Below are positions 13,764 to 35,466 of a stretch of DNA of 38,122 nt, piece after piece. The stretch covers positions 1 to 38,122 of IMG/VR virus record IMGVR_UViG_3300036781_000111. The stretch is one strand, 5' to 3'. How positions within the stretch are numbered: position 1 is the first letter of the stretch; every line of letters begins with the position of its first letter. Source of the stretch: a virus. A model generated the notes under the pieces. The model was not told the DNA's origin. It made no database searches and was given only the letters and a program-made list of their open reading frames with translations. The position numbers and the translations under genes are program-made.

Positions 13764-13773
13764 GGCGGTCACT

Positions 13774-14727: not shown

Positions 14728-16683
14728 CTACTTCTTGGGTGCGGCTGTCGGCGCGAGCTGCGGAGGCGTCACACCCTTGGGCGGCACGGCGGGGACAGCG
14801 GGCGCGGCCGGCGCAAGGCTTGGGATGGCGACCTTGCCGAGCTTGCGCAACGGGATGCGCTGCGTGTCGGTTGCGCCATCGGGGAGCACAACCGCATACT
14901 GCTCGCCGTTGGCGGTGCCGAAGCCCTCGATGGCGAACTGACCCCCAGCCGCAGCCGGGTCCATCGGCAGGCCCGTGGTGGGGTCCAGCACCGGCAAGGG
15001 CGGGGCGACGGGCTCTTCCAGCGAGAAGTCGCCCAGGATGCGCGCCACCATCTCGGTCAGGACGTTGTCGGGGATCGTGCCGCCGCCGAGGGTCTTCGCC
15101 GCGGCGAGGTCTTTCAAGGCGGTGGCCAGGGTGCCCAGCAGCGCCGGGGTCATCTGCGCGAGGTAGCCGTCCTCCGGCTTCACCTCGGGCACGCCCATCG
15201 CGTCCAACTGGTCGCCGGTGTAGCCCGCCTCGGTGAGCGCCTGGCGGGGCGTGATCCCGTTCTCGATCTTGGCGGCGACTAGGCTCATGCCTTCGGCGTC
15301 GGTGGAGACCTCGCTGGGCAGCCAGACCGCGTCCACCTTCTTGCCCTGCCCGATGCCCCAGTAGCGCAACGCCCACCCGCCGATGCCGCGCCAGGTCTGC
15401 CCGTAGGAGCCTTTCACCTTCTGGGAGTGCTTCACGATCGGCGCGTCCGCTCGACGTCGGGCCTCGCCGCTGGGCTGGTCGCCGCCGCCCATGAACTCGT
15501 ACAGCGGCGTGCGCGTGAGCGTGGCGGCGGCCTGGATCTGGAACTGCTGCGGATCCAGGAAGCCTTTCGGGTCGGTGGGGTCGAACTGGCCGGCACCTTT
15601 CAGGCCGCGCAGCATCCACAGCCCGCCCGGGACCGTGCCCAGGGCCGACTTGCCGGTCTTGCTGCTGTCCGGGCCTGCGCTCTCGTCGACCGTGCCGCTG
15701 TCGTTGAAGTCGTCGTCGATGTCGTCGCCCTCTTCGGCGTTCGGGTCCATGAGGGCGTAGCGCTGCGGGAAGCCCTGATAGTCCAACGCCGCCATCAGGG
15801 TGGCCTGAATCTTCGTGATCGCGTCCTGGGCGCCGTAGGCCTTCAGGTTCACCGGCGTGCCGTAGGGCTTCGAGTCGGGGCGGAAGTGGTGGAGCGGGAA
15901 ACCGTAGTCGTGGAACTCGATGGCGGGCTCTTCCTCCACGTCCTCGGTCTCCGCGCCGGTCTCGTCGACCACCTGGACGATCCGCTGCACATAGGTGTAG
16001 CTGACGGCATGGTCCGCGAACGTGCCCGCCTGCGGCTGCGCGCCACCGGTCGGACTCTCGCTGGTGCCCACCGCGGTTCCGCCCGCGTCACCGACCACGG
16101 TGCCGGAGCGGGTCACGAACTGGTGGATTGCGTCGTCGTAGAAGAGATTCGCGCGCCAGGTGTTCTTGCCTTCCTTCCAGCGCGTCACCCCGAACTCGAC
16201 CATGCGGGGATTCTCTTTCGAGTACACCACCCGGGTCGTGGTCGGGTGCTTGCCGATAACCTCGATGACCTCGGCGGCGCTGGTGTCGTCGTCCTCGTCG
16301 GCGGGACGCGGCCAGGTGATGGCGTAGTAGTCGCCCAGATACGCGGCTTTCAGGTGGAAGTCGTCGGCGTCGTCGTCCAGGTCGTTCGGCCCCCACAGCT
16401 CCGACTCGATCCGGTCGTCGAGGGTCTTGTCGCCGGTCTTCAGCGCCTGCAGGTCGATCCGGTCCACGAGGGCGTCGGCGGGGATGCCGGCGTAGTTGAG
16501 CTGGAAGCCTTCGCCGTACTTGGCGAGCAGCCGGTGCAGGGCAGGGTGGGCGATGATCTCCCCGACCTTGCCGTCGTAGTACTCCTGGCGTTTCTGGTAC
16601 TCGTCCAGGTTGTCGACCAGTTCGCGCAGCGCCCGCTCGAGGTCGAGCTTCACCCGGTCCGGGTCGGTGGGGGAGTTGGCCAT
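14728..16683 (-). CDS. Portal protein, SPP1 gp6-like, 651 aa
   Basis: Large acidic protein lying upstream of MuF and downstream of terminase. Portal features include an N-terminal helical part (LDEYQKRQEYYDGK), LKAAYLGDYYAITWPRP, the stem-region pattern (AITKIQATLMAALDYQGFPQRYAL) and the QIQAAATLTRTPLYEFMGG motif, close to the usual T-x-P-xx-x stretch. A Pro/Ala-rich tail ends the protein. Twelve copies would form the DNA gate. Start ATG 16683 has GGGTATCACC-type complement upstream but no strong ribosome site, so it may be coupled to the preceding 52-aa gene, 27 bases upstream. Confidence 0.92.
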   Translation of the reverse strand: MANSPTDPDRVKLDLERALRELVDNLDEYQKRQEYYDGKVGEIIAHPALHRLLAKYGEGFQLNYAGIPADALVDRIDLQALKTGDKTLDDRIESELWGPNDLDDDADDFHLKAAYLGDYYAITWPRPADEDDDTSAAEVIEVIGKHPTTTRVVYSKENPRMVEFGVTRWKEGKNTWRANLFYDDAIHQFVTRSGTVVGDAGGTAVGTSESPTGGAQPQAGTFADHAVSYTYVQRIVQVVDETGAETEDVEEEPAIEFHDYGFPLHHFRPDSKPYGTPVNLKAYGAQDAITKIQATLMAALDYQGFPQRYALMDPNAEEGDDIDDDFNDSGTVDESAGPDSSKTGKSALGTVPGGLWMLRGLKGAGQFDPTDPKGFLDPQQFQIQAAATLTRTPLYEFMGGGDQPSGEARRRADAPIVKHSQKVKGSYGQTWRGIGGWALRYWGIGQGKKVDAVWLPSEVSTDAEGMSLVAAKIENGITPRQALTEAGYTGDQLDAMGVPEVKPEDGYLAQMTPALLGTLATALKDLAAAKTLGGGTIPDNVLTEMVARILGDFSLEEPVAPPLPVLDPTTGLPMDPAAAGGQFAIEGFGTANGEQYAVVLPDGATDTQRIPLRKLGKVAIPSLAPAAPAVPAVPPKGVTPPQLAPTAAPKK

Positions 16684-16710: not shown

Positions 16711-16869
16711 CTACTGACGCGCTGACGCCTCAAGCAATACGATCACGGCGCGCTCAGCATTCGCAGGCTCCCAGCCTGCGTCGATGAACTGCTGGCGAAA
16801 GCCGGTCATGGTGGCGACAGCGTCCTTGGTCTTTTCAAGGATGGCGAGAAAGTCCGGGTCATCAGCCAT
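16711..16869 (-). CDS. Small conserved-type protein upstream of portal, 52 aa
   Basis: Begins MADDPDFLAILEKTK and continues TMTGFRQQFIDAGW, ending LLEASARQ. ATG 16869 has GGAG seven bases upstream. The F-R-Q-Q-F-x-x-A-G-W pattern with a following Ala-Glu helix is, from memory, seen in short actinophage proteins near structural genes, but I know no function. It is the first gene after the operator-controlled promoter at 17067 and its long-stem leader. Confidence 0.75.
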   Translation of the reverse strand: MADDPDFLAILEKTKDAVATMTGFRQQFIDAGWEPANAERAVIVLLEASARQ

Positions 16870-17038: not shown

Positions 17039-17067
17039 AGGCTAGTTGACCGGCCAACTAGTGTCAA
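17039..17067 (-). promoter_or_regulatory. Late-region promoter with palindromic operator (site 1)
   Basis: On the minus strand a perfect TTGACA (17067-17062) is followed by 17 bases and TAGCCT (17044-17039). The spacer contains the palindrome CTAGTTG-N6-CAACTAG (17042-17061), shared with three other sites in the window. It lies four bases downstream of the large terminase stop and reads toward the 52-aa gene, portal and capsid. The -10 is weak, so it may need a low repressor level or an activator. Confidence 0.7.
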
Positions 17068-17071
17068 GGGC

Positions 17072-18646
17072 CTAAGCCGCGTAGTTCGCCTGCTCCACAC
17101 CCGAGCGCTTGCCGATGACCCGGTCCAGGAAGTAACTCACCCCGGTGCCGATCGCGTCGACCAGGTCGTCGTTGGGGGCGTTCGGAAACGCGACCATCTC
17201 CCCTTCGGCGTCAGCGAGGCCCGGCGCGAGTTCGTCGCCGTCCTGGTAGTGGATGACGCGCCCGCGCTGGTAGTGGTCCAGCACCTGGGCGGCTCGGACT
17301 TCCTTCTTGACGCTCTGGTGCTTGTCCTTGACCCTCACCGGCATGCCCCAGAGGATCTGCTGCCAGACCTCGCCGCCCTGATTGGTCTCGACCAGGATCA
17401 GGCCGACCTCGGGGTGCTTGGCGAGCAGTTTCAGGACGCGCCGGCGAATCTCCGCGCCGGACAGCTTGACCCGTTCGGCGTGCTTGACCAGGACGCGGCC
17501 GCGCGCCCGAGACCCCCTCGGCGGCGGCTTCCAGCCGATGATGGCCAGGCCGGTGAAGTCGCTGGAGGCTTTTGTGGTGACGGCGGGGTCGATGCTCAGC
17601 AGCGTGCGAGTGCAGCCTTCCAGGTTGCCGTGGGTGAAATCGTCCATGCTCCAGTAGTCGCCATCCGCGCCGAGCGGGTCGTTGGCGTAGTTCTTGGCGT
17701 AGGCGCGGGTGTGCCTGATCTTGCGCAAGTGCTTCAGCGTCCACCGCGCCGGCCAGATCGAGCGCTCATCCCCGGCCTTATTGCGGGTGATGGCGGGGAA
17801 GTAGTGGGCGCGCCAGCCGTCGTCGCGGATCCAGTTGGCGGTGGCCCGACGCGGGTAACCTTCGGCGCTGCGGGCCAGGTCATGCACGATCGAGTCCACC
17901 ATCGTGACCGTGCCGACCAACTCGACCCTGGCCTTGTCGTTCAGCGGCAGGACCGCGTCCTGCAAGGTGCGCAGCCGCTTCACCTTGGCCCGGGCCGAGT
18001 AGCTGGCCTCGTCGGGCTCGATGTCGTCCAGGATGATGACGTCGGGCCGGTCGCTGCCGACTTTCAGGCCGAGGGTCTTGCTGTCGATGCCACGGGCGGC
18101 GAACACGAACCGGGACTGCGAGCGGTACAGGCTGACCCGGTCGGCGGCGAGCATGCCGCGCTCGCGGCGCAGCGGGTTGACCAGCTCCGGGTAGTCCTCG
18201 CGCAGCAGCACGTTGGTCTCCAGCTCGTGCTTGAACGTGGCCAGGTGGGTTTCTGCCTGCTCGCTGGAGTCGGCCATGGCGACGATGAACCGCGCCCAAT
18301 GATGCGCCGCCGCCCACATTGGGATCAGGAGAAACCACCAGGTGGACTTGCCCGTCTCGCGCGGGGCGATGTCCGCGTCCCGGGTGCTGGCGGCGGCGGT
18401 GACTGGCACCATCCACGACTTGGCCCGCTCCGCCCAGGCCAGGTGGGCGTCGCTGAAGCTGATCTTGTCGCCGGTCTGGGCGCTGCGCAGGTGGTGGCTG
18501 AAGTACATCTGCGCAAACTCGAGCGGGTCGGCGCGGGTGGCATGGACGCGCAACTGCCGGCGCTCGGCCGGGGTCGGCAACCGGGTCATGGCCGCCATCA
18601 CGTCCCGGTGACGGGCGATCGCCCGCTCAGCCTCCTTGGCGGTCAT
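17072..18646 (-). CDS. terL: Terminase large subunit, 524 aa
   Basis: Start chosen at ATG 18646 (MTAKEAERAIARHR), overlapping the previous gene by 20 bases; the 11 extra upstream residues read through that gene. ATPase part: a Walker A-like APRETGKST at residues 94-102 (Arg-rich variant) and Walker B VIILDD at 203-208 followed by Glu210. Nuclease part: Asp353 in SIDPAVTTKASSDFTG, Glu420 in LILVETNQGG and Asp493/494/497 in PNDDLVDAIG, the RNase H-like metal ligands. The protein packages DNA through the portal. No intein or truncation is seen. Confidence 0.93.
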   Translation of the reverse strand: MTAKEAERAIARHRDVMAAMTRLPTPAERRQLRVHATRADPLEFAQMYFSHHLRSAQTGDKISFSDAHLAWAERAKSWMVPVTAAASTRDADIAPRETGKSTWWFLLIPMWAAAHHWARFIVAMADSSEQAETHLATFKHELETNVLLREDYPELVNPLRRERGMLAADRVSLYRSQSRFVFAARGIDSKTLGLKVGSDRPDVIILDDIEPDEASYSARAKVKRLRTLQDAVLPLNDKARVELVGTVTMVDSIVHDLARSAEGYPRRATANWIRDDGWRAHYFPAITRNKAGDERSIWPARWTLKHLRKIRHTRAYAKNYANDPLGADGDYWSMDDFTHGNLEGCTRTLLSIDPAVTTKASSDFTGLAIIGWKPPPRGSRARGRVLVKHAERVKLSGAEIRRRVLKLLAKHPEVGLILVETNQGGEVWQQILWGMPVRVKDKHQSVKKEVRAAQVLDHYQRGRVIHYQDGDELAPGLADAEGEMVAFPNAPNDDLVDAIGTGVSYFLDRVIGKRSGVEQANYAA

Positions 18647-18908
18647 CGTCCAGGGGCACGTCCACGTCGAAGACCTCATCGGCGCCGGTCGGGATCTCGT
18701 GCGCGAGGGCGGACGCGAGCAGGAACGTCCAGCCGTCCGGGGCCTCGATGCCGGACTGGAGTTGGCCAGCTGTCACCTCGATGCCGACCGGCTCGATGCC
18801 CTCGGCCAGCATCGCCTTCGTGAGCGTGTCCGCGAGCACGTCACTGGCCGCGTCCTGGTCCCCGACACGGACGAGGGCGGTCAGGCGCCAGAGGGGGTGC
18901 TCAGTCAC
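18627..18908 (-). CDS. Small acidic protein between terminase subunits, 93 aa
   Basis: GTG at 18908 overlaps the small terminase TGA (GTGA). The protein runs from TEHPLWRLTALVRVG through LLASALAHEIPTG to an acidic tail VDVPLDDDRQGG. Mixed alpha/beta, no named domain. Being coded between the two terminase subunits and overlapping both, it may take part in packaging; this is inference only. Confidence 0.7.
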   Translation of the reverse strand: MTEHPLWRLTALVRVGDQDAASDVLADTLTKAMLAEGIEPVGIEVTAGQLQSGIEAPDGWTFLLASALAHEIPTGADEVFDVDVPLDDDRQGG

Positions 18909-19471
18909 GTCGCCGCCTCGATCGGCGGCAGGTCCAAGGCGGCGAGCATCTCGTTGAGTTCGTCCGTGACTTGGTCGACGACGGTGACGACGACCTCGGA
19001 GCGCTCGGGGGCGTTGTAGCCGATCATCACCGCGCGCTGGGCCTCGAGCCGGGTCAGTTCGCGCTGGGCGGCGATCATCACGCGCCGGTCCTGCTGGACG
19101 ATCATCTGCGGGTGAAGGCGGATCAGCCGCTTCACGCTCACGTTCATCTCGTGGGCGGCGGCCTCGGTGGCGATCTTGTCGATCGGCTTGGCGAGGTCTT
19201 CCAGTTCCCGGATGCGCCGGTCCAGCGTGGCCAGGGCGCGGTAGCGCTCGCGGCCCTTGTCCGGGTCCACGACGATGCCCGCCTCGCTCAGGGCGCCGTC
19301 CAGCAGCCCGTTCAGGGCCGACTCGTGCAGCTCGTAGCCGAGCCCGCCGCGCTTGGGCGGCAGGGACGAGAGCCGGCGCATCTCCCCGATGGTGACGTGG
19401 TCCATCCAGTGCGCGTACACCCACCGGCGCTCGCGGACGACCTGGGCGGGCAGCAGGTCAGTGTCGGGCAT
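18905..19471 (-). CDS. Terminase small subunit-like protein, 188 aa
   Basis: N-terminal HTH-like stretch (RRWVYAHWMDHVTIGEMRRL), then a long central coiled coil (LDRRIRELEDLAKPIDKI and QQDRRVMIAAQRELTRLEAQ). Small terminases use an N-terminal HTH to bind pac/cos DNA and a helical oligomerisation core, and they lie upstream of the large subunit, as here. There is no clear ribosome site before ATG 19471 (a C run precedes it), so coupling to the upstream gene is probable. Confidence 0.72.
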   Translation of the reverse strand: MPDTDLLPAQVVRERRWVYAHWMDHVTIGEMRRLSSLPPKRGGLGYELHESALNGLLDGALSEAGIVVDPDKGRERYRALATLDRRIRELEDLAKPIDKIATEAAAHEMNVSVKRLIRLHPQMIVQQDRRVMIAAQRELTRLEAQRAVMIGYNAPERSEVVVTVVDQVTDELNEMLAALDLPPIEAAT

Positions 19472-19480
19472 GGGGGGATT

Positions 19481-19930
19481 CTAGCGCTCGAACCGAGCCT
19501 GGAGCACCTTATCGAAGGCGTATCGATCGACCCACGAGTACCCCGTCTCCACGCTCACGGTGGTTTTGTTGAGCCGAGCCACCTTGTGCCAACTACCGCC
19601 AACCAACCGGACATGTGTAGCCCCGATCAGGTCCTTTTGCGTGAGGCGTACACGGTCACGCTCTGCGATCCTGCGCGTATAACTGGCGACCTTGGCCTGC
19701 CAGTAGTCGTAACGCTCCTGCGCCTCGGTCTCGGCCCGGTAGCTGCTGTCGAGGGCGGAACGTACTTTCGTCGCTGCACGTTGCGATCCTGAACCACCGA
19801 AGCCGGGGATGCCGCCGCCGAGTTGACGGGCGGCTTCGTGCTTGGCCTCGGCGCGGTCGATCGCGACCTGCACCACAGCTAGCTTCTGGGTCGCGTAGGC
19901 GAGGCGTTCCTCGAGAGTGTATTCGCTCAT
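19481..19930 (-). CDS. Hypothetical coiled-coil protein, 149 aa
   Basis: ATG 19930 overlaps the previous stop (ATGA) and has GAAAGGG upstream. The first half is a coiled coil (QKLAVVQVAIDRAEAKHEAA and AQERYDYWQAKVASYTRRIAE) with a Gly-rich break (GGGIPGFGGSG). The second half (HVRLVGGSWHKVARLNKTTVSV) looks like a small beta-barrel, possibly KOW/SH3-like. Lies just upstream of terminase. Function not recognised. Confidence 0.65.
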   Translation of the reverse strand: MSEYTLEERLAYATQKLAVVQVAIDRAEAKHEAARQLGGGIPGFGGSGSQRAATKVRSALDSSYRAETEAQERYDYWQAKVASYTRRIAERDRVRLTQKDLIGATHVRLVGGSWHKVARLNKTTVSVETGYSWVDRYAFDKVLQARFER

Positions 19931-20385
19931 AGCATCCCTTTCGCCTCGGTGATTCCGATCGCACGGTCGCGCCCGTGACCGTAGCGGACCCGGGCACCTT
20001 GTGTCTTCCCGTGCGCCCAGGTGGCGCGAATCTTCACGTCACGGTCCCGGTGAACGACCAGGACGACGACGGACACGACCATGGCCGCCTCGTCGAGCAC
20101 GACGCCGGCGTGGACGGCCCAGCCAGCGGCCGCGGCGGCTCGGGCGAACTGGCCAGGGGCACCGCCGAGCTCGGCCGGCGTCACGGTCCGGGGTCGGTAC
20201 ACCTTCGGTTCCTCGACGCTGGCCGGGCCGCGCAGCTCTCCCTGAACGGTCCGCTTGCCTTTCGCGTTGACGTACCCCAGTAGCCGCTTGCGCCGACCGA
20301 AGGCCCGGACCGCGACGCGGGCACTCTCCGCTTCCGGCGTCAGCGTATGCCACGGGATCGGTGCCATCAGGCCGTGAGTGTCCAT
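19927..20385 (-). CDS. Hypothetical protein, first gene of the leftward unit, 152 aa
   Basis: Start placed at ATG 20385 (MDTHGLMAPIPW). The frame stays open to 20496, but that part overlies the promoter region and an inverted repeat. No ribosome site precedes 20385, so the message may be leaderless or start at the inner ATG 20367. Contains RRKRLLGYVNAKGKRTV, basic, and a hydrophobic AAMVVSVVVLVVH stretch that is a beta strand rather than a clear membrane segment. No family recognised. Confidence 0.6.
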   Translation of the reverse strand: MDTHGLMAPIPWHTLTPEAESARVAVRAFGRRKRLLGYVNAKGKRTVQGELRGPASVEEPKVYRPRTVTPAELGGAPGQFARAAAAAGWAVHAGVVLDEAAMVVSVVVLVVHRDRDVKIRATWAHGKTQGARVRYGHGRDRAIGITEAKGML

Positions 20386-20588
20386 GCCGCTAACGCTAGC
20401 AGAAAACGTCCCGTTATCTGGGTCTCGACGATAACGGCAGCCCGAAAGGCCTTGCCTAAATGTACTTTCACGCGTAACCAAGCGTTCTGTAAACACCCCG
20501 GTGCGCGCGTCATAAGCGTGTTACATGGACCTTGGACACATAGGAAAGTTGTACAGGCTATGGGTATTTTCGGTGTTATGGTACCGAT
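20386..20588. promoter_or_regulatory. Divergent start region with inverted repeat
   Basis: 203 bases between the first leftward and first rightward genes, with locally lower GC. CCGTTATC (20411-20418) and GATAACGG (20430-20437) form an 8-bp inverted repeat with 11-base centre, well placed as an operator for the leftward gene. An imperfect direct repeat GTGTTACATGG / GTGTTATGG lies at 20518 and 20573. On the minus strand TTTACA is seen near 20495, and on the plus strand TTGTAC (20549) and TGTTAT (20574), spaced 19; none is a convincing full promoter. A replication origin here is possible, but no iterons were found. Confidence 0.5.
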
Positions 20589-21176
20589 ATGTCATTCAAT
20601 CATTCAGGCGAACCCTCCGTGCATCGAACCCGCCAGCGCCGCGACTGGGCACCCCTCATCGAGGCCGCCAAAGCCGACCCCACCCAGTGGTTTCAGTACC
20701 CCGATCGCGTCCCCCGCTCCACTCAGCAGAACATCCTCGAGCACTCCCTCTTCCAGCCGGGCCAGTTCTGGCAGACCCAGATCACCGACTTCCATGACGG
20801 CCGCGGCTACCTCTGGATCAAGTACTCCCCGCCAGCCGACCCGACCCCGTTCGTGCTCACCCGCGACTCGGACGGCGTCCGTGCCCGCGTCCCCGTCTTG
20901 ACCCTCTCGGAGATGATCTGGTGGGACCACGGCATCACCTCCAGCTACGAGCCCCGTCCCGAGTACGAGCCCGGCTACGACCCGGCCAACCCGCCCCCGC
21001 CGCCGCCGCCGAAGGTGAAGCGCTCCAAGCCGACCGGCCACCGCTTCGATATCCCCGACGACGCCTGGGGCGACCCCGCCACCGTCGACGCACAGGGCCT
21101 CCCCACCACCCCCGCCGCCCCCGCCACGCCGACCCCGCCCCGACCCTTGACCGGCCCCGCCGACCCGATAGAGTAG
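20589..21176 (+). CDS. Hypothetical protein, first rightward gene, 195 aa
   Basis: ATG 20589 has no ribosome site but lies about 10 bases after a -10-like TGTTAT, so a leaderless message is plausible. Residues about 15-120 look folded (RDWAPLIEAAKADPTQWFQYP, then LEHSLFQPGQFWQTQI). From about 115 the protein is Pro-rich (EPRPEYEPGYDPANP, a run of seven Pro) and disordered to the end. No family recognised; possible early regulatory or host-interaction protein. Confidence 0.65.
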   Translation: MSFNHSGEPSVHRTRQRRDWAPLIEAAKADPTQWFQYPDRVPRSTQQNILEHSLFQPGQFWQTQITDFHDGRGYLWIKYSPPADPTPFVLTRDSDGVRARVPVLTLSEMIWWDHGITSSYEPRPEYEPGYDPANPPPPPPPKVKRSKPTGHRFDIPDDAWGDPATVDAQGLPTTPAAPATPTPPRPLTGPADPIE

Positions 21177-21179
21177 CCC

Positions 21180-21282
21180 CGGGCCGTGAGAAGCCACCCG
21201 GCCTGACTTCCCTCCAAGTGCCACCGTCTCGACGGTCTGCCGGGGAGCCAGGCCGGGACCACGGCCCGCCCCGCTTCTCACG
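21180..21282 (+). ncRNA. Candidate structured RNA with two alternative folds
   Basis: Starts four bases after the previous stop. Fold A: CGTGAGAAGC (21185-21194) pairs with 21273-21282 (10 bp); CCCGGCCTG (21197-21205) with 21249-21257 (9 bp); CTCC (21212-21215) with GGAG (21244-21247); ACCGTC (21223-21228) with 21231-21236. Fold B: CGGGCCGTG (21180-21188) pairs with CACGGCCCG (21260-21268), which excludes the outer helix of fold A. Just downstream, ACAG-GAAGG-CTGT holds the ribosome site of the next gene in a hairpin loop. All pairings are exact in the sequence; the regulatory role is inference. Confidence 0.6.
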
Positions 21283-21302
21283 ACAGGAAGGCTGTACCCG
21301 AA

Positions 21303-21962
21303 ATGGCGCTTCGCATCCCCTTACTGGACGAAATGGCCCGCGCGCTGTGGGAGAGCGAGTCACGCGACATGACCTGGTACGAGCTACTCGACGCCACGAC
21401 CAAGGAATCGCCAAGCGGCATCGCTGAGCGTGCGCAGCTCCATGGCGTCCGGAGCCGGGCGCACCTAATCCTCACGCGCCTATTCGCTGACCCGTTGCCG
21501 GCGCCGAGGCCGCCGATGGGCGCCGAGTGGGGCGAGGTTGATCCCAGTGCCATTTTCGAGGCGTTGCGCATGCTCTTGCCCGGTTTCGAGTTCCAGGTGT
21601 TCAATAGCCACGCGGTCACCTTCAGCACCGTGGTCAAGGCGCGACGGGCGCAGGGCGCTCTCGAGCTCACCGACTACACGCTCATGGACAATCGCGCCAC
21701 CGGCGCCGCCATTATCTCCTTCGTGCGGCAACTGCGCGCCGACGCTATCCATGCCTACGGCCTCGATAAGGCATTCGAGGCCGAGTGGGATCGTGCCCGC
21801 GGCGAGGCGCGCGCACAGACCATCAAGGGCGTGCTCGGCCTCATCGAGGCCACCCGCGTCTGGGTCGAGCCCGAGGGTGACATCGATGACGAGAGCGGAT
21901 ACCTCGAGCCCCTGACGCCGGAAATGGCGCGCCTCGCCGCTCAGCTACGCGCCAATGACTGA
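21303..21962 (+). CDS. Hypothetical early protein, 219 aa
   Basis: ATG 21303 is 11 bases after AGGAAGG. Mostly helical; an N-terminal helix-rich part (MTWYELLDATTKESPSG, HGVRSRAHLILTRLF) could be HTH-like but is weak. The middle (LELTDYTLMDNRATGAAI) is unremarkable. Overlaps the primase-helicase start by eight bases, so probably co-translated with it and possibly a replication partner. Not recognised. Confidence 0.7.
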   Translation: MALRIPLLDEMARALWESESRDMTWYELLDATTKESPSGIAERAQLHGVRSRAHLILTRLFADPLPAPRPPMGAEWGEVDPSAIFEALRMLLPGFEFQVFNSHAVTFSTVVKARRAQGALELTDYTLMDNRATGAAIISFVRQLRADAIHAYGLDKAFEAEWDRARGEARAQTIKGVLGLIEATRVWVEPEGDIDDESGYLEPLTPEMARLAAQLRAND

Positions 21963-24477
21963 CTCCCCCAAGGGCGTCCCCGGTACTCCGATCGCCTCCC
22001 CCGACGACACCCTGACCATCGCCCTGTCCCTGGCCCGTCAGGGCTGGTACGTCTTCCCGGTGAACCTGATCCCGACCACTCGGCCGGACGGGTCCACCTT
22101 CACCGACAAGCGCCCCCTGATCCGCTGGCTGGAGGGCGCCACCACCGACCCGGAGCTGATCGCCACCTGGTGGGGCGCCGACTTCCCGGGCGCCTGGATC
22201 GGCGTCCAGTGCGAGAAGAGCCGTCTCGTCGTCGTCGACCCGGACACCGATAAGGGGCAGCGGTTCCCGAAAGGTCACGAGCGCGAGGGCGAGCTCAAAG
22301 GTGACGGCAAGGCGAATCTGAAGGCGGCCGGAATCAAGCTGCCCAAGACCTTCCACTACCCGACCCGCTCGGGTGGCTCTCACTACGTCTACCGCGCCCC
22401 CAAGAAGCGCCGTCTGACAATCGCCCAGGACGTGCCGGTGCCGTCCGTCGACGTCCGCGCCGGCCACGGCCTGATGGTCTACTACGGCCCGGAGCTGACC
22501 GGCAAGCCATCCCTGGCCCCCGCCCCGTCCTGGGCACTCCTGGACGCCAAGCACGATCGCTCAGCGATCGGTCCGGGCACCCCGTCCGCGACCGTGCAGC
22601 AGTGGCTGGACCGTGTCCCTGACGGACGCCAGGACCCTCATGTGGTCGCGGCCCGTAAAGAGGTCACCGCCACCGGCATGGGCCACGACCAGATGCTGGC
22701 CGCCGTCGACCGGCTCGTCCGGCTCGGCTCGGAGGGGGCGAAAGGTGCCGGTCACGCCCTCCTGGAGGCGCGCGAGACCTATCTGGCCGACTTCCCCGAG
22801 CACGCCCGGCACTGGGACACCGCCGTCCAGGGCTCGGTCGCCCACTACGGCCTGCCCCTGCATCTGATCCGCATCCCGAAAGCGGACCGGGTCGCCATCC
22901 GGGAGCGCAAGAAGAAGCGCGCCGACAAGACCGACACGGACCCGGTCCGGCTCGGGGTTCGGCTGCTGGACGACGGCCCGCTGGCGGAGGAATGCGCCGA
23001 GCGCTTCGAGGGGGTGTGGGCGTGGGGCCACGACCGCGGGCTGATGCACTGGCGCGACGGCCGCTGGCTGGTCCCACCCGCCGAGCTGGCCGGACGGCTC
23101 CTAAAAGAGGACGTCCGCACCTACCTGCGCGGCATCGAGGTGGAAGAGCACACCCGGGCGGTTCAGCGCGACGACGGGCCGCGGATCAAGTTGGCCCAGA
23201 CGCTGTTGAGTGGGTCGAAAGCTCGAGCCGTCACCGACCTGCTGCAGGGCATCCTGGCTAAGCGGCAGCTGGCCACCGACGCGGACCCGTGGCTGCTGAA
23301 CACGCCGACCGGTGTCGTGGATCTGCGCACGAAGACCCTCCAGTCCCACGACTGGCGTCTGGGCATGACGAAGATGACCGCGGTCGGCTACGACCCGCAC
23401 GCCGACACCACCGTCTGGGACCAGGCTCTCACCGCCCTCCCGCCCGAGGTTGCGTCGTGGATGCAGTACCGACTCGGCCAGGCCGCGGTGGGCCTGCCGC
23501 CCGAGGACGACGTGATGCTGATCCTGCAAGGCGGTGGCGAGAACGGGAAGACCACGATCGCGCACGCGCCCCGGGTGAGCCTGGGCGACTACGCGGTGAA
23601 GATGAGCGACCGTGTCCTGATGGCCAACCCGGGCGACCACCCGACCGAGATGATGGAGCTGATGGGCGCCCGCTATGCGCTCGCGGAAGAGTTGCCAGAA
23701 GGCCGCTCGCTGAACGTGCAGCGGGTGAAAGAGATCATCGGCACCCCGGAGATCACTGCGCGCCGGATGCGGCAAGACCCGGTTACGTTCACGAGCTCGC
23801 ACACGCCGGTCATCACCACCAACCCGATCCCGGTGGTGCCGGAGACCGATCACGGCTCCTGGCGTCGACTGCTGCTGGTGAAGTTCGATTACCGCTTCGT
23901 GAAACGGCCCCAGGACCGCGTCAGCGAGCGTGACAGGCTGGGCGACCCGAACGTGCGCCGGCTGCTCGCCAAGCCCGACGCGGGCGTCCTGGCGTGGCTG
24001 GTGGACGGTGCAGCGGCATGGTGGGCGGCGGACCAGGTGATGCCGGAGCCTCCGGCGAAGGTTCTGCGCGACACCGAGCTGTGGCGCGAAGACGCGGACC
24101 CGGTGATGGGCTACTTCACGGAGCGGCTCGAGATGGACCCGGCCAGCGCGATCACCTGCGACGACCTGGGGCGCGATTTCAACGACTGGCTGCGCCGGCA
24201 CGAGCACCGGCCCTGGGGGGCGCAGACGGTCAACTCCCGCTTCGGCGGCCATGTCACCTTCGCCAGCGTCGAGCGCCAGCGGGCCAAGTTCGACGGCACC
24301 CTGCGTCCGTCCCGCCCCCCGATGTCGATGGGTCCTGTCCCGGCCAACACCTGGTCATGGGTGGGCGTCCGGTTCGCGACCGAGGCGGGGTCGGGGATCG
24401 GGCCCAGCGACGAGGGCCTGCAGCGGAGCCGGTTCGACGAGATCGTGATGGGCCTGACGGGGCCGAGCGATGACTGA
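21955..24477 (+). CDS. Prim-Pol primase and SF3 (D5-type) helicase fusion, 840 aa
   Basis: Residues about 20-200 match the bifunctional primase/polymerase domain: GWYVFPVN (30-37), KRPLIRWLEGATTD (52-65), IGVQCEKSRLVVVDPD (82-97) with the catalytic DPD at 95-97. A D5-N-like region (PEEVASWMQYRLGQ type) precedes the SF3 helicase: Walker A GGGENGKTT at 526-534, an acidic ALAEELPEG Walker B region at about 572-580, the EIIGTPEITARRM stretch, and TTNPIPVVPETD near 620-632 as sensor, followed by RRLLLVKFDYRF. Such fusions prime and unwind phage DNA. It starts in overlap with the upstream gene. No polymerase of family A or B is coded in the window, so host polymerase III is presumably used. Confidence 0.92.
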   Translation: MTDSPKGVPGTPIASPDDTLTIALSLARQGWYVFPVNLIPTTRPDGSTFTDKRPLIRWLEGATTDPELIATWWGADFPGAWIGVQCEKSRLVVVDPDTDKGQRFPKGHEREGELKGDGKANLKAAGIKLPKTFHYPTRSGGSHYVYRAPKKRRLTIAQDVPVPSVDVRAGHGLMVYYGPELTGKPSLAPAPSWALLDAKHDRSAIGPGTPSATVQQWLDRVPDGRQDPHVVAARKEVTATGMGHDQMLAAVDRLVRLGSEGAKGAGHALLEARETYLADFPEHARHWDTAVQGSVAHYGLPLHLIRIPKADRVAIRERKKKRADKTDTDPVRLGVRLLDDGPLAEECAERFEGVWAWGHDRGLMHWRDGRWLVPPAELAGRLLKEDVRTYLRGIEVEEHTRAVQRDDGPRIKLAQTLLSGSKARAVTDLLQGILAKRQLATDADPWLLNTPTGVVDLRTKTLQSHDWRLGMTKMTAVGYDPHADTTVWDQALTALPPEVASWMQYRLGQAAVGLPPEDDVMLILQGGGENGKTTIAHAPRVSLGDYAVKMSDRVLMANPGDHPTEMMELMGARYALAEELPEGRSLNVQRVKEIIGTPEITARRMRQDPVTFTSSHTPVITTNPIPVVPETDHGSWRRLLLVKFDYRFVKRPQDRVSERDRLGDPNVRRLLAKPDAGVLAWLVDGAAAWWAADQVMPEPPAKVLRDTELWREDADPVMGYFTERLEMDPASAITCDDLGRDFNDWLRRHEHRPWGAQTVNSRFGGHVTFASVERQRAKFDGTLRPSRPPMSMGPVPANTWSWVGVRFATEAGSGIGPSDEGLQRSRFDEIVMGLTGPSDD

Positions 24478-24673
24478 CGCCCTGCCGACGTCGCTGATCC
24501 TGTCCGGGCTACCGGAAGGCGCCGAGGTCTTGTGCGCTTATGTCCTGTACGAGCACGGCGGCCAGTGGAACGTCAGTGAGCAGTTCGCACGGGCGATGAC
24601 GGTCCAGGAACGCCGCAACGGCGCCCGCCTGCTGAGGTGGCTAGCGGACGCCGTCGACGTGGATACACTCTAG
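24470..24673 (+). CDS. Hypothetical small protein, 67 aa
   Basis: ATGACTGA overlap with the helicase. Protein MTDALPTSLILSGLPEG then VLYEHGGQWNVSEQFAR, ending DVDTL. No named domain. Its stop codon shares the palindrome CTAG with the stop of the opposing 87-aa gene, so there is no room for a terminator between the two transcription units. Confidence 0.7.
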   Translation: MTDALPTSLILSGLPEGAEVLCAYVLYEHGGQWNVSEQFARAMTVQERRNGARLLRWLADAVDVDTL

Positions 24674-24933
24674 GAGTTCCGGGTCAGGGTGAAGGTGGTC
24701 TTGTAGCCCCACTCGAGCAGGCCCTTGTCACGGCGGTTCGCGATCACCCACCCGTCGCGCAGCAGTTTCTCGAGCGCGTGACGGCCGCCCATGGTGCGCA
24801 TGGCCAGTTTCACGGTCTTGACCTCCTGCCACGCCGGCGCCGCGGTCGGGACATAGCCCGGGGCCTGGGCCGCGGCGATAGCGGCGAGCTTCTTCGGGTC
24901 CTGCTCGGTCAGGTACTGCCAAAGGGTTCTCAC
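24670..24933 (-). CDS. Hypothetical protein, last of leftward early cluster, 87 aa
   Basis: GTG at 24933 overlaps the previous TGA (GTGA). Starts VRTLWQYLTEQDPKKLAA. A C-terminal part LAMRTMGGRHALEKLLRDGWV looks like a winged-helix or WYL-free small helix-turn motif: helix, then GWVIANRRDKGLLEWGYK with a beta-hairpin-like ending. A role as a DNA-binding protein is possible but unproven. Overlaps the opposing gene end by four bases. Confidence 0.65.
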   Translation of the reverse strand: MRTLWQYLTEQDPKKLAAIAAAQAPGYVPTAAPAWQEVKTVKLAMRTMGGRHALEKLLRDGWVIANRRDKGLLEWGYKTTFTLTRNS

Positions 24934-31040: not shown

Positions 31041-32750
31041 ATGGGCAAGGATAAGAAGAAGAGCAAGGGCAAGAAAGCCAATGCGACGGTGGCGGAGGTC
31101 CGCGCCGAGGTCATCGATCAGGTCTTCGCCAAGGCCAAGAAGACGTCCAAGGCCGCCAAGAAGGCGAGCAAGGCCTGGAACGAGCACGACGCGCTCGAGC
31201 ACAAGATCAAGGGGGCGAAGAGTCCCGACGCACTCCCCGGCGAGACTGAGGTCGACTATCAGTGGCGTAAGGCACACGAGAAAGAGAAAGCTGAGCGTGA
31301 CCCGCTCGCGGTCGGTCCCGGTGATGCGGTCCCAGACCCGACCCTGGAGCCCGCGCTGGCTTACGTCGCCTCGGTCATCGAGCAACTCGGTCCCGTTGAT
31401 GACGAGCCCGACGACGAGGCCAAGCATCCGCACCTGAAGCACCTGGACGAGGTCGGCCGGCTGGACGCGATCGTGAACGACAAGGCCCAGCCCAAGAAGG
31501 CCCGCCAGAACGCCCAGGCCCGCCTCGATCACCTCCGCGCCGAGGGCGAGGCCGCGCAGGCCAAGCGCGACAAGAAGGTGACAGTGACGGGCCTGAAGCC
31601 AGGAGTTGTAAACCAGGTTGAGGTCATGGAGGTATCCGACGTAAAAACTGGGAAACTGAAGACGCCCAAGGTCACCGTCAACGGTGTACCCCAGACCGTC
31701 ACCGTGGTCGATACCGAGGTCGGCCGCGAGTTCCAGGTGGGTGCCGCAGACACGCTCAGCGCCCCCACCCAGCCCGAGGGCGAGGCCACGATCGAGCGCG
31801 ACCACCTGGGCCGACCGAAGATCCAGTACCGCGACGCGGCGGGGAAGGTGAAGAGCAAGGCGTACACCCGCGTCACCACCTACATCAAGTGCCTGGAGGA
31901 TACTTCCTTGCTCGAGAAGTGGAAGCTTCGTACCTCCCTGATCGGAATGGTGGCGGACGCCGGGGAGGACAACCTCATTGCCGCCACCCGACTCGTCACC
32001 GCCCACGACAAGGCGCTGCGCGTCATCACGAAACGGGAGAAGAAAGGCGAGCTGGACTTGGGCCAGTTCGGGCTCATGCGCGCAGACGCGGACAAGGCGC
32101 TGCGCGATGGCTTGAACGCGATCGCGGACAAGACCCTGGACCTGGGCGGGGCGCACGAGAAGGCGCTGAAAGGCACCAACCTGCACGCCCTCACCGCCAT
32201 GCTCGACGAAGGCAAGATCGCCATGGACGACCCGGACGGGCTGGAGAACCTCGTCGAGTCTGGTCTGGCCACCCACTCGGACATCGCGGACCTGCGCGCC
32301 TACGACTCGAAGATGCGCGAGCTCGGCATCAGGCACGTCGCCGTCGAGCAGATGGTGGTCATCGACGAGCTGGCCGTGGCCGGGACCTTGGACCGGGCGA
32401 GCCTGTACCGGTTCCCCGGCACCACCCGCGCCATCCGCTGCGTGGCCGACATCAAGACGGGCCGCGTCGACTACGGCGCCGGGACCATCGGCATGCAGAT
32501 CAAGATGTACGCCCTCGGTAAGTCCTACGACCCGTCAGCGGCCGACCCGTCCCAGCGCGAGGATCTGAAGCTGAGCAAGTCGAAAGGCCTGCTGATCCAC
32601 CTGCCCCAGGGTCAGGCCCGCTGCGAGGTCTACGAGGTGGACCTGGACCTGGCCACGGTCGGGACCAAGTTGGCCGGCGAGGTCCGCGCCTGGCGCAACG
32701 CCGGGAAGCGGGTCGTGGACCTGACTAAGCCGCTGGCGGTGACCGAGTGA
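31041..32750 (+). CDS. RecB/Cas4-like PD-(D/E)XK exonuclease, 569 aa
   Basis: AAGGAGG six bases before ATG 31041. The C-terminal part carries the nuclease motifs in order: Glu436 in VEQMVV, Asp451 in GTLDR, Asp470-x-Lys472 in VADIKTG, and Gln486/Tyr490 in QIKMYA, the last typical of RecB/Cas4-type enzymes. The N-terminal 20 residues are Lys-rich (GKDKKKSKGKK); residues about 20-190 are charged helices. The middle (about 185-290) is beta-rich. It is probably a recombination exonuclease. No Cys cluster for an iron-sulphur centre is seen, which argues against Cas4 itself. Confidence 0.8.
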   Translation: MGKDKKKSKGKKANATVAEVRAEVIDQVFAKAKKTSKAAKKASKAWNEHDALEHKIKGAKSPDALPGETEVDYQWRKAHEKEKAERDPLAVGPGDAVPDPTLEPALAYVASVIEQLGPVDDEPDDEAKHPHLKHLDEVGRLDAIVNDKAQPKKARQNAQARLDHLRAEGEAAQAKRDKKVTVTGLKPGVVNQVEVMEVSDVKTGKLKTPKVTVNGVPQTVTVVDTEVGREFQVGAADTLSAPTQPEGEATIERDHLGRPKIQYRDAAGKVKSKAYTRVTTYIKCLEDTSLLEKWKLRTSLIGMVADAGEDNLIAATRLVTAHDKALRVITKREKKGELDLGQFGLMRADADKALRDGLNAIADKTLDLGGAHEKALKGTNLHALTAMLDEGKIAMDDPDGLENLVESGLATHSDIADLRAYDSKMRELGIRHVAVEQMVVIDELAVAGTLDRASLYRFPGTTRAIRCVADIKTGRVDYGAGTIGMQIKMYALGKSYDPSAADPSQREDLKLSKSKGLLIHLPQGQARCEVYEVDLDLATVGTKLAGEVRAWRNAGKRVVDLTKPLAVTE

Positions 32751-32914
32751 TTATCGCGATCCTGGCGCTGGCCGTCCTGACGGTGCTGAGCGTCCAGGCC
32801 ACTAACCGCGAGCCCGACAAGGTCAAGAGCCAGCACCTCGGCGCCATGGCGATAACCTTCGCCACCGCGATCATCGTTCTGGCGATCATTCTTCTGGCAA
32901 CTGGAAGGCTCTAG
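32747..32914 (+). CDS. Two-pass small membrane protein, 55 aa
   Basis: GTG 32747 overlaps the exonuclease TGA. Membrane segments at about 2-17 (IIAILALAVLTVLSVQ) and 34-52 (MAITFATAIIVLAIILLA), joined by a polar loop NREPDKVKSQ. Stop TAG 32912-32914 lies inside the palindrome of operator site 4. Unknown function. Confidence 0.7.
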   Translation: MIIAILALAVLTVLSVQATNREPDKVKSQHLGAMAITFATAIIVLAIILLATGRL

Positions 32915-32928
32915 TTGACCGGTCAACT
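32911..32928 (+). promoter_or_regulatory. Palindromic operator (site 4), no clear promoter boxes
   Basis: CTAGTTGACCGGTCAACT, with a 16-bp uninterrupted perfect palindrome AGTTGACCGGTCAACT at 32913-32928; the right arm lacks the final AG of the other sites. TAACCT follows at 32931-32936, but no fitting -35 lies upstream. It precedes the Lys-rich 158-aa gene by 100 bases. It may act as an operator for a weak or activated promoter, or as a roadblock site. Confidence 0.65.
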
Positions 32929-33026
32929 GCTAACCTAGGGGTGGCCGAGATGGCCCAGTCCCCGCGGGATTGTTTCACGCTCACGCCAACGGCAAGTCAC
33001 GAAAATATCAAGGAAGGGTAACGATC

Positions 33027-33503
33027 ATGGCAAAGGACAAGAGCAAGGACAAGAAGGGCGGGAAGGCCGCGATGGCCTCACCCGCCAAGTCCAACAAGAA
33101 GGACAAGGGCGGCGACTACAAGCTGAGCGCGCCCGGCACGGGCGGCCAGTTCAAGGCCGAAGACCACGTCGGGCGGCTGCTGCTCATCACGCCCCACGAG
33201 GTGGAGCACGACATCAAGACCAGCAACGGGGACGCCAACGCGACCCGGGCCGACATCGTCGTGCTGGACGAGAAGAGCAAGGGCAAGGACGTCGTCCTGG
33301 ACGACTCCCTGATCTTCCAGAAGGTGGTCCAGGGTCAGCTCCGCGAGGCGATCGCGCAGAAGTCCCGGGTGGTCGGTCGGCTGTTCGTCGACAAGGACAG
33401 CAAGAAGGCGGGCCAGTCGGCCCCCTACAAGCTGGCGGCACCGTCCGAGGACGAGATCAAGCTCGCGGCCAAGTACCTGGACGACCTCGACCCGCTGCGC
33501 TGA
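33027..33503 (+). CDS. Lys-tagged early protein, possible ssDNA-binding type, 158 aa
   Basis: ATG 33027 has AAGGAAGGG eight bases upstream; the longer frame starts in the leader. Residues 1-35 are almost only Lys/Asp/Ser/Gly (MAKDKSKDKKGGKAAM). The folded part (VGRLLLITPHEVEHDIKTS, RADIVVLDEKSKGKDVVL, SRVVGRLFVDKDSK) is a five-strand pattern that could be an OB fold, as in phage ssDNA-binding proteins. Followed by a strong terminator, so probably made in quantity. The OB call is tentative. Confidence 0.66.
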   Translation: MAKDKSKDKKGGKAAMASPAKSNKKDKGGDYKLSAPGTGGQFKAEDHVGRLLLITPHEVEHDIKTSNGDANATRADIVVLDEKSKGKDVVLDDSLIFQKVVQGQLREAIAQKSRVVGRLFVDKDSKKAGQSAPYKLAAPSEDEIKLAAKYLDDLDPLR

Positions 33504-34197: not shown

Positions 34198-34532
34198 CCC
34201 GGTCGCGCGCCGAGCGCGTCAAGCTGAAGAAGGCGGCCCGGAAGTCGTCGCAGCGCCGCGGCCGCGAACTGGACGGCGTCATCTACGTGCGCACCGAGAT
34301 CCCCGACCAGGACCTGGTCAGCGAGCGCGACCTGATCCTGCACACCATTGACGAGTCGATCGCCACCCTCCAGTCCGAGGGCTGTGACGTCCGGCACCTG
34401 ACCGTCGTCACGTTCGGCACCAGCGACCCGAAGAGCGCCGGCCGGATGTCCGTCGAGGTGAAGAGCCGCCTCGCCCCCGGCGCGGCCAGCATATTCAAAG
34501 ACCCCGCGCCAGCCGTTGCGGATGATGACTGA
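34194..34532 (+). CDS. Hypothetical basic protein, 112 aa
   Basis: ATGA-coupled. Very basic first 24 residues (TRSRAERVKLKKAARKSSQRR), then VIYVRTEIPDQDLVSERDL and HLTVVTFGTSDPKSAGRM, a compact alpha/beta fold. The basic start suggests nucleic-acid contact. Not recognised. Confidence 0.65.
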   Translation: MTRSRAERVKLKKAARKSSQRRGRELDGVIYVRTEIPDQDLVSERDLILHTIDESIATLQSEGCDVRHLTVVTFGTSDPKSAGRMSVEVKSRLAPGAASIFKDPAPAVADDD

Positions 34533-35466
34533 CCTGCTGGACGATTCCTTCCCCCACGGCACGAAGGCTGGGTATGACGCAGGGTGCCGGGGCGGGGCGT
34601 GTCCGGCCCCGATGAAGTGTCGGGACGTTCGCGCTCGCTACATGGGCGATTACGCCTTCCGGCGCCAGATCGATGCCGGCCTGACGATTGCCACTATCCT
34701 AGCCAATGAGCTAGCTGACGCCGAGAGCGCCCGCCTGGCCGCTGTTGCTGAGCGTCAGGCGGCGCGCTCGGCACTGCTGGTTCAGAAGCCGCAGAAGCCG
34801 CCGCGAGAACGCACCCCGAAGCCGCCGCGAGAACGCACCCCGAAGCCGCCGCGGCCCGAGCCCGCCCCGGTCCTGCATGGTTCATTGACGATGTACCGAC
34901 GCGGCTGCCGCGATGACACCTGCCCCGCCGATCCTTCATGCTCGACCGTAGCGCTTGCCTACTACGCGGCCCGGAACCGTGCCCTGGTGCGCACCGTGCA
35001 AGGGCATGGGACTAACGCCTCCTTCGTCCGTGGCTGCCGGTGCGAGCCTTGCCAGGAGGCGCACCGCAAGTACCACCGCGACTACGCCGCCAAACGGAGA
35101 GCCGAGCCGATCCCCACCGACAAGCACGGCACCGTCTACGGCTACGTTCTGGGATGCCACGATCGTGCAGCCTGCCCCGCGTCACCGACCTGCACCGATG
35201 TACAACGTGCAGCGGAGACCGCGCAACGCCGCGCCCGTGGCCTCGATCCCGCTCCCGAGCTCGTGGACGCGGTGCCAGCTATCCGGCACATTCAATCTCT
35301 ACGCTCTCGCGGGCTGACCTATGCCGAGATTGCCGCAGCCGCAAAAGTGGGCAGAACCGCGATCGCCGCACTCGTCCGGGGCCGCTACGGCGGCGATCGC
35401 GCGGGCCAAGTCCCTGAGCGGATTTCCGCCGAGCGTGCCGCTCGGATACTGGCGATCGATCCGTAG
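34525..35466 (+). CDS. Protein with four HGT/GC zinc-ribbon-like modules and C-terminal HTH, 313 aa
   Basis: ATG 34525 (ATGACTGA overlap; a second ATG is three bases upstream). Four modules of form HGT-xxx-Y/F-xx-GC-x(n)-C: residues 11-32 (HGTKAGYDAGCRGGAC), 118-139 (HGSLTMYRRGCRDDTC), 161-176 (HGTNASFVRGCRCEPC) and 201-223 (HGTVYGYVLGCHDRAAC). A Pro/Arg linker with the repeat PPRERTPK lies at 92-109. Residues 262-286 (RGLTYAEIAAAAKVGRTAIA) form an HTH. Modules of this kind are widespread in actinobacteria and their phages but usually single. Likely a DNA-binding, zinc-stabilised protein. Confidence 0.78.
   Translation: MTDLLDDSFPHGTKAGYDAGCRGGACPAPMKCRDVRARYMGDYAFRRQIDAGLTIATILANELADAESARLAAVAERQAARSALLVQKPQKPPRERTPKPPRERTPKPPRPEPAPVLHGSLTMYRRGCRDDTCPADPSCSTVALAYYAARNRALVRTVQGHGTNASFVRGCRCEPCQEAHRKYHRDYAAKRRAEPIPTDKHGTVYGYVLGCHDRAACPASPTCTDVQRAAETAQRRARGLDPAPELVDAVPAIRHIQSLRSRGLTYAEIAAAAKVGRTAIAALVRGRYGGDRAGQVPERISAERAARILAIDP

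What the first reader, a model, noticed from the sequence alone, without database searches (positions are those of the whole stretch)
17039..32928. Four-copy palindromic operator network over both genome arms
CTAGTTG-N6-CAACTAG occurs at 17042-17061, 25926-25945 and 29526-29545, and a shortened form at 32911-32928. All four are intergenic or at a stop codon. Three lie between or over -35 and -10 boxes with 17-18 base spacing. They face the capsid unit, the early unit, a second early unit and the Lys-tagged gene. This means one regulator could switch late and early transcription together. No phage CI-like repressor is seen. The style resembles operators of actinobacterial TetR-family repressors, so a host regulator could be the partner; a phage RHH protein is the other candidate.
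Basis: partly seen in the sequence, partly recalled or inferred. Interest (0 to 1): 0.8.

Follow-up and report, generated by a model that had tools for sequence, protein, structure and literature searches.

The report
Phage-wide RHH repressor operator network
A virus of bacteria carries the same 20-base mirror-image switch site at four gene-control points, and comparison with related phages suggests that a small DNA-binding protein made by the phage itself works these switches, with each phage using its own version of the site.

Summary
CTAGTTG-N6-CAACTAG is exact at 17042, 25926 and 29526, with a 2-mismatch copy at 32911. Three copies are noncoding; the fourth overlaps a stop codon. The three exact copies fill the 17-18 bp spacer of TTGAC(A/G)-TAGNNT promoters.

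Relatives lack the exact motif but often keep the design. Of 17 non-redundant records of one phage group (Microbacterium phages Wyvern, Isperia and OscarSo included), 10 have two or more such promoters. Spacers are more alike within than between phages (0 of 10,000 label permutations), though not in every phage.

The likely partner is a 67-aa ribbon-helix-helix protein (25605-25808, minus), not a host TetR. Its gene is divergent from operator 25926, which contains the -35 of its own promoter. RHH homologs lie on the strand opposite the early genes in 18 of 19 records. RHH similarity tracks operator similarity (partial r 0.43, 1 of 5,000 permutations; operator seeds chosen by me). No integrase, ParA-type ATPase or TetR gene was found, and no CI-like domain over cut-off.

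Best reading: a phage-encoded, autoregulated Arc-like repressor of early and late promoters. Binding and repression are inferred, not shown.

The parts
25605..25808 (-). 67-aa ribbon-helix-helix (Arc/CopG-like) protein, proposed cognate repressor
   Evidence: AlphaFold2 with a 14-sequence family alignment: helices 20-33 and 37-51, pLDDT about 90-97 over residues 21-50; nearly all of the 50 rows are RHH proteins (CopG, Arc, ArtA, PutA, omega, NikR); homologs in 17 other records; alone it has no Pfam, PHROG or PDB sequence hit
25926..25945 (.). Operator R/E1, CTAGTTGGTCGGTCAACTAG, in the spacer of the rightward early promoter and over the -35 of the leftward RHH promoter
25920..25948 (+). Early promoter TTGACA-N17-TAGTGT
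   Evidence: consensus match only
25913..25941 (-). RHH promoter TTGACC-N17-TATGAT, overlapping the operator
   Evidence: consensus match only
17042..17061 (.). Operator L, CTAGTTGACCGGCCAACTAG, 11 bp past the end of the terminase gene
   Evidence: an operator-type site within 700 bp after the terminase in 10 of 15 other records with an assessable terminase end (in 6 of the 10 the site was one of my own seeds)
17039..17067 (-). Late promoter TTGACA-N17-TAGCCT towards portal, capsid and tail genes
   Evidence: consensus match only
29526..29545 (.). Operator E2, CTAGTTGGTCAATCAACTAG
29519..29548 (+). Second early promoter TTGACG-N18-TAGTAT towards the exonuclease unit
   Evidence: consensus match only
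32911..32930 (.). Operator E3, CTAGTTGACCGGTCAACTGC, over a stop codon upstream of the SSB-like gene; last two bases degenerate; no clear promoter pair
17072..18646 (-). Terminase large subunit, upstream neighbour of the late promoter
14728..16683 (-). Portal, downstream of operator L (a 52-aa ORF 16711-16869 lies between)
   Evidence: Pfam SPP1_portal just below its cut-off
26048..29518 (+). Early unit downstream of operator R/E1 (mostly unknown genes, a 54-aa LuxR-type HTH ORF included)
31041..32750 (+). Exonuclease, in the unit downstream of operator E2
33027..33503 (+). Lys-rich phrog_870 protein (function unknown in PHROGs; SSB-like is my guess), downstream of operator E3
21955..24477 (+). 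Primase/helicase anchoring synteny with Wyvern, Isperia and OscarSo

Best explanation
The sites are operators of a phage-encoded ribbon-helix-helix repressor made from 25605-25808 (minus). Inferred mechanism: RHH dimers pair on the 20-bp palindrome, which fills the -35/-10 spacer of the late, first early and second early promoters, and block RNA polymerase there. At 25926 the same bound complex covers the -35 of the divergent RHH promoter, so the protein limits its own synthesis. The phage thus ties early units, the late head/tail unit and the repressor's own gene to one protein level. In the phage group the layout tends to be kept while operator sequence and RHH drift together, giving each phage its own code. 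Shown here: sites, promoter geometry, predicted RHH fold, synteny, within-phage recurrence and covariation. Inferred: binding, repression (rather than activation) and timing.
For: Sites and spacer geometry. Divergent RHH gene whose own consensus promoter overlaps the operator. Predicted RHH fold. RHH homologs in 18 of 19 records, window included, all on the strand opposite the exonuclease, and within about 3 kb of the primase in the 16 that have a primase match; first single-sequence search: 9 loci at E 1.4e-8 to 0.085. Within-phage spacer similarity 11.7 against 7.9 between phages, 0 of 10,000 label permutations, promoters picked by their boxes only. Query made of the RHH upstream region: the own genome beats all compared others in 7 of 18. 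RHH identity against operator similarity: r 0.47 (0 of 5,000 permutations), 0.43 after correcting for three core proteins (1 of 5,000). Other HTH-like window ORFs are not kept: 28903-29067 and 29826-30086 have no match in the 18 others, 34516-35466 one at E 0.018.
Against: No binding or expression data. An operator-type site lies within 200 bp upstream of the RHH start in 18 of 18, but in all 18 I had taken a search seed from there, so that count is circular. In one search, 11 of 18 queries are matched or beaten by 1 to 14 other genomes. In one search only 6 of 10 phages with two or more sites match themselves better than any other phage; G048 and G059 match each other, Isperia and OscarSo match others better. 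G046 and G050 show no 17-18 bp-spaced promoter of this type, nor do the partial loci L077 and L085 (dropped later). Palindromes over all spacers are barely above shuffles (4.08 against 3.80, sd 0.12, shuffle maximum 4.21). G052 has the network but no RHH hit; its contig may be cut there. Wyvern and Isperia RHH matches are weak before retraining (E 0.021 and 0.079). Operators also track general relatedness (r 0.33). The seeds for the covariation test were chosen by me.
Confidence: 0.74

Rival explanations
1. A host regulator (TetR- or ArsR-type) binds the sites, so that host state sets phage transcription.
For: An orthologous ArsR-SRPBCC promoter in three Arthrobacter genomes holds the strict 20-mer; palindromic operators of this kind are common for such regulators (recalled).
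Against: Only 6 stretches, one site each, in the genome collection, no more than my chance estimate of about 15; operators differ between phages and track the phage RHH; Wyvern and OscarSo, both on Microbacterium though of different species, have different operators; an RHH gene is found in 18 of 19 records.
Confidence: 0.1
2. The RHH is an activator or an early-to-late timing switch rather than a plain repressor.
For: The same element sits at early and late promoters; the RHH protein AmrZ is both activator and repressor (abstract of PMC3325190 in the listing).
Against: Sites lie inside a standard 17-18 bp spacer, where a bound protein should block polymerase; the -35 boxes are near consensus.
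Confidence: 0.11
3. The RHH and its sites form a partition or DNA-organising system (ParG/omega-like centromere).
For: RHH centromere binders exist and appear among the fold matches (omega, ParG, MatP).
Against: No AAA_31 (ParA-type) match in 19 records; the sites are at promoters, not clustered.
Confidence: 0.03
4. Only the promoters are conserved; the palindrome is promoter similarity or chance.
For: TTGAC and TAG are part of the repeated element, and TAG -10 boxes are usual in actinobacteria (recalled); spacers of relatives are hardly more palindromic than shuffled ones.
Against: Similarity was scored on spacers without the boxes and is higher within than between phages; three exact 20-mers against 0.37 loose ones expected in the window.
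Confidence: 0.02

Closest known systems
Cluster A mycobacteriophage repressor with dispersed operators/stoperators (L5, Bxb1, Trixie); PMC6550527, passages seen
   Same: Phage-encoded repressor with several sites over the genome, a site at its own gene proposed for autoregulation, and repressor and site motif diverging together between related phages.
   Different: There: 20-30 asymmetric 13-14 bp sites, most not at promoters, bound by a monomer, oriented with transcription, phages with integration or partition genes. Here: a handful of sites (4 in the window, symmetric) mostly inside promoter spacers, an RHH protein, early and late promoters, no integrase found.
P22 Arc and Mnt (RHH repressors), recalled; Arc structures matched
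   Same: Small phage RHH repressor with a roughly 20-bp two-fold operator overlapping promoters (recalled).
   Different: Arc and Mnt act at one immunity locus of a temperate phage (recalled); here one RHH appears to serve several promoters on both genome arms.
phiC31 conserved inverted repeats (recalled; searches listed no paper on it)
   Same: Dispersed palindromic repressor sites near promoters of an actinobacteriophage (recalled).
   Different: A temperate phage with an HTH-type repressor and many more sites (recalled).
OscarSo gene 47, annotated 'ribbon-helix-helix DNA binding domain protein' (record OP434449.1)
   Same: Syntenic homolog of the proposed repressor.
   Different: Annotation of fold only; no operator or target named in the record.

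Membership tests
Ribbon-helix-helix (Arc/MetJ/CopG) proteins | Short extended strand followed by two helices | tested here: met
   AF2 model H20-33, H37-51; CopG 2cpg Z 5.2, rmsd 1.7 over 45; Arc 1baz Z 5.2, rmsd 2.3 over 49. Caution: Z under 8 can be a common arrangement; best Foldseek E is 0.38 and unrelated chains appear in its list. The strand is extended but, in a monomer, not assigned as strand.
Ribbon-helix-helix (Arc/MetJ/CopG) proteins | Family-model match | tested here: inconclusive
   The window protein has none; 4 of 17 family members match RHH_1 (best E 0.0017) and 5 of 17 match phrog_3431 'Arc-like repressor' (best E 1e-4).
Ribbon-helix-helix (Arc/MetJ/CopG) proteins | Dimer binding DNA through the paired strand | not testable with these tools
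   Monomer model only.
Cluster A stoperator systems | 20-30 asymmetric 13-14 bp sites, mostly away from promoters | tested here: not met
   4 near-symmetric sites in the window, 3 in promoter spacers. Definition from PMC6550527 passages.
Cluster A stoperator systems | Repressor and site motif diverge together | tested here: met
   Partial r 0.43, 1 of 5,000 permutations, 16 phages; operator seeds chosen by me.
Temperate phage immunity system | Integrase or partition ATPase present | tested here: not met
   Phage_integrase, Resolvase and AAA_31: 0 of 19 records each. Some records may be fragments; other integration genes were not searched for.
Lambda-type CI repressor systems | HTH_3-type repressor | tested here: not met
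   No match over cut-off in 19; one sub-cut-off match in the window at 35305-35385.
TetR-family repressor/operator | TetR protein encoded with the operator | tested here: not met
   TetR_N in 0 of 19 phage records; a host protein is not excluded by this.
ParG/omega-type partition | RHH centromere binder beside a ParA ATPase | tested here: not met
   AAA_31 in 0 of 19.

The most novel reading that the evidence does not exclude
A whole group of integrase-less actinobacteriophages runs its lytic programme through a phage-wide RHH operator network whose code diverges from phage to phage, that is, heteroimmunity-like specificity without lysogeny, used for timing or for shutting out sister phages in the same cell.
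Probability: 0.35. Interest if true: 0.72.

Novelty: new variant of a known kind. Interest (0 to 1): 0.58.

Why it matters
Dispersed-operator control with co-diverging repressor and sites is known from cluster A mycobacteriophages. Here a similar logic appears with one of the smallest DNA-binding folds, at early and late promoters, in phages where no integrase, ParA-type ATPase or CI-like domain over cut-off was found. It offers up to 16 non-redundant candidate repressor/operator pairs of different specificity, and named phages are in the group (Wyvern, Isperia and OscarSo, hosts given as Microbacterium), so both the repression model and the evolution of RHH specificity can be tested directly. 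It also suggests targets for a gene annotated only by fold in OscarSo and apparently overlooked in Wyvern and Isperia.

Tried and rejected
Looser motif in viral contigs: 12 stretches, one match each, which I take as chance; the stricter form gave 0. Forty-five terminase relatives: the motif with up to 3 mismatches in 3 of 45, one each, fewer than the reversed-pattern control gave; no promoter by a similar rule from 60 bp before to 500 bp after the end of the terminase match in 44 of 45, so I treat these as too distant. Relatives by RHH protein alone or exonuclease alone: none confirmed; phage collection by RHH protein: no match. LuxR-type HTH ORF 28903-29067 as the kept regulator: rejected, no match in 18 other records. 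One search used a gap that I had counted wrongly; its zero means nothing. Single-sequence AF2 differs from the family model and was not used. The first recurrence test used 170-bp queries that ran into genes; replaced. The first permutation test counted two window promoters that share DNA; repeated without one of them. From I used loci L068-L086; L087-L151 were not examined. Of those 17 contigs, G054 (L077) and G061 (L085) were dropped; neither showed a promoter of this type. No account of this network was seen in the listings of searches; most subscription papers are not held. Papers: passages of PMC6550527 and PMC10690885; all others search listing only. After rechecking, confidence was lowered from 0.77 to 0.74 because the 18-of-18 site count is circular and only 6 of 10 phages match themselves best.
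Full report
OBSERVATION. The palindrome is real and in the places named. Three copies are exact and the fourth has two mismatches at its right end. The count with up to 3 mismatches is 5 against 0.37 expected, and no other inverted repeat with exact 7-base arms recurs in the window. With 95.05% of the window coding in my gene model, three sites have no coding base and the fourth overlaps a stop codon. At 25926 the repeat extends to ACACTAGTTG-N6-CAACTAGTGT.

PROMOTERS. The three exact sites fill the spacer: 17067- TTGACA-N17-TAGCCT, 25920+ TTGACA-N17-TAGTGT, 29519+ TTGACG-N18-TAGTAT. Its -35 lies inside the operator and it points at the RHH gene 25605-25808. At 32911 I found no good box pair. 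All are consensus matches, not measured starts.

WHERE IT COMES FROM. The window is a whole IMG/VR virus record. Megablast found no DNA-level relative in the phage collection. By protein, the nearest named phages are Microbacterium phages Wyvern, Isperia and OscarSo: terminase 47-53%, primase 45-46%, similar gene order in the opposite orientation. Scans with primase and endonuclease VII alignments gave further relatives. I used loci L068-L086 (17 contigs); two short contigs (G054, G061) were dropped, leaving 15, which with the three named phages and the window make 19 records. G057 and G058 are near-duplicates of G056 and were left out of the permutation tests.

THE LETTERS CHANGE. A promoter scan that uses only the boxes (rule set after seeing the window's) was run on all 19 records. 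Of 17 non-redundant records 15 have at least one site with a 17-18 bp spacer and 10 have two or more; G046 and G050 have none. Examples of repeated spacers: G049 CCTAGTTGTCAGCCACTAGG and variants; G059 and G048 GCCATTGGTCGGCCAC and variants; G060 three around AGCGCRC; G052 five, variants of TCACCTAWTATGCGACG. In one search, 38 spacers in 15 phages give mean similarity 11.7 within against 7.9 between phages (18 of 46 within pairs and 9 of 657 between pairs share 13 or more bases), 0 of 10,000 label permutations; without G052 and G059, 10.95 against 7.75, again 0 of 10,000. By phage, 6 of 10 (window, G049, G051, G052, G055, G060) match themselves best; G048 and G059 match each other; Isperia and OscarSo match other phages better. 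Over all spacers palindromy is barely above shuffles (4.08 against 3.80, sd 0.12, shuffle maximum 4.21).

POSITIONS. Of 16 records with an assessable terminase end, 11 have an operator-type site within 700 bp downstream (window, Wyvern, Isperia, OscarSo, G047, G049, G056, G057, G058, G059, G062). In 8 of these the box scan also finds a promoter pointing downstream (not Wyvern, G047, G062). In 6 (Wyvern, Isperia, OscarSo, G056-G058) the site was one of my seeds, and the G059 site is seen but falls below the threshold. G051 has a promoter there with another spacer; G046, G048, G050 and G055 have none. G052 has no tblastn match to this terminase, carries what looks to my eye like an unrelated one, and still has a promoter whose -35 overlaps that gene's stop codon, with its own operator. 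Between exonuclease and phrog_870 gene an operator-type site is seen in the window, G050, G053, G055, G060 and G062, 6 of 19; in G053, G055, G060 and G062 it was also a seed.

THE REGULATOR. The 67-aa protein 25605-25808 alone has no Pfam, PHROG or PDB sequence match. A search with it among ORFs of relatives gave 9 loci at E 1.4e-8 to 0.085. A profile of nine then found L078, L070, L084, OscarSo, L071 and L069 (E 8e-15 to 3e-5), with Wyvern and Isperia weak at 0.021 and 0.079. The 15-sequence profile reaches 18 of 19 records (Wyvern 9e-9, Isperia 2e-8), only three of the 18 outside its training set. All 18 lie on the strand opposite the exonuclease, within about 3 kb of the primase in the 16 records with a primase match. 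G052 has no hit; its contig begins about 1.4 kb before the first shared gene and may be cut. In Wyvern and Isperia the ORF lies under an annotated gene of the other strand. OscarSo's was annotated as RHH by its depositors. Family members match RHH_1 (4 of 17) and 'Arc-like repressor' (5 of 17). The model from 14 sequences has two confident helices after an extended stretch. Nearly all of the 50 rows are RHH proteins, at Z about 3 to 5; Foldseek E-values are all 0.38 or worse and its list also has unrelated chains.

LINK BETWEEN PROTEIN AND SITE. In 18 of 18 records an operator-type site lies within 200 bp upstream of the RHH start, but in all 18 I had taken a seed there by eye, so this count is no test. 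Querying each genome with that upstream region, the own genome beats every compared other in 7 of 18 cases (G046, G050, G051, G055, G060, G062, window) and is matched or beaten by 1 to 14 others in 11. Across 16 phages RHH identity correlates with operator similarity (r 0.47, 0 of 5,000), still after correcting for exonuclease, phrog_870 protein and endonuclease VII identity (partial r 0.43, 1 of 5,000); operators also track those core proteins (r 0.33). The operator seeds were mine, so these figures support but do not settle the link.

OTHER CANDIDATES. Of three other HTH-like window ORFs, two have no match in the 18 other records and 34516-35466 one marginal match in G048. TetR_N, AAA_31, Phage_integrase and Resolvase: 0 of 19 each; HTH_3: none over cut-off. 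A scan of the genome collection (84,980 species) for the strict 20-mer gave 6 stretches, one site each; my estimate of chance at even base composition is about 15. Three are one orthologous ArsR-SRPBCC promoter in Arthrobacter. That is the best host-side alternative, but it would not explain why operators differ among relatives.

MECHANISM. I read the RHH as an autoregulated repressor that blocks polymerase at early and late promoters by occupying the spacer. Whether this serves timing, exclusion of sister phages, or a quiescent state cannot be told from sequence. Records may be fragments, so the absence of an integrase is tested only on what is held.

NOVELTY. Multi-site phage repressors with co-diverging sites are known (cluster A, PMC6550527, passages), and RHH phage repressors are known (Arc, Mnt; recalled). 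The combination described here was not seen in the listings of the searches made. New variant of a known kind.

Noticed in passing
25953-26047: The leader of the first early transcript folds into a long hairpin just before the GAAAGG ribosome site (-51.6 kcal/mol, z -3.4); the L086 leader does the same (z -3.3), while the four other stretches tested do not stand out from shuffles.
   Followed up: partly
L065 29003-29419 +; L066 27854-28282 +: RHH-like ORFs in Wyvern and Isperia lie under annotated genes of the opposite strand (genes 43 and 42).
   Followed up: partly
G052 (L179, L180), contig 38670-40401: A relative with an apparently unrelated terminase still carries a promoter with its own operator right at the terminase stop codon.
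   Followed up: partly
L181, L184, L185: The strict 20-mer also occurs in the promoter of an ArsR-SRPBCC operon in three Arthrobacter genomes.
   Followed up: partly
28903-29067 +: Free-standing 54-aa LuxR/GerE-type HTH protein (Pfam GerE E 9.6e-9), no match in the 18 other records compared.
   Followed up: partly
30296-31003 +: Protein with a long Ala/Asp then Ala/Tyr repeat tract (DNA about 30736-30937).
   Followed up: no
12942-13121: About nine 18-nt tandem units in the C-terminal part of the protein 12852-13772 (minus), which gives only a sub-cut-off low-complexity Pfam match.
   Followed up: no
20386-20618: Noncoding region between the two arms with an inverted repeat (CCGTTATC...GATAACGG), seen by eye; relatives also seem to have inverted repeats there; possibly an origin.
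   Followed up: no
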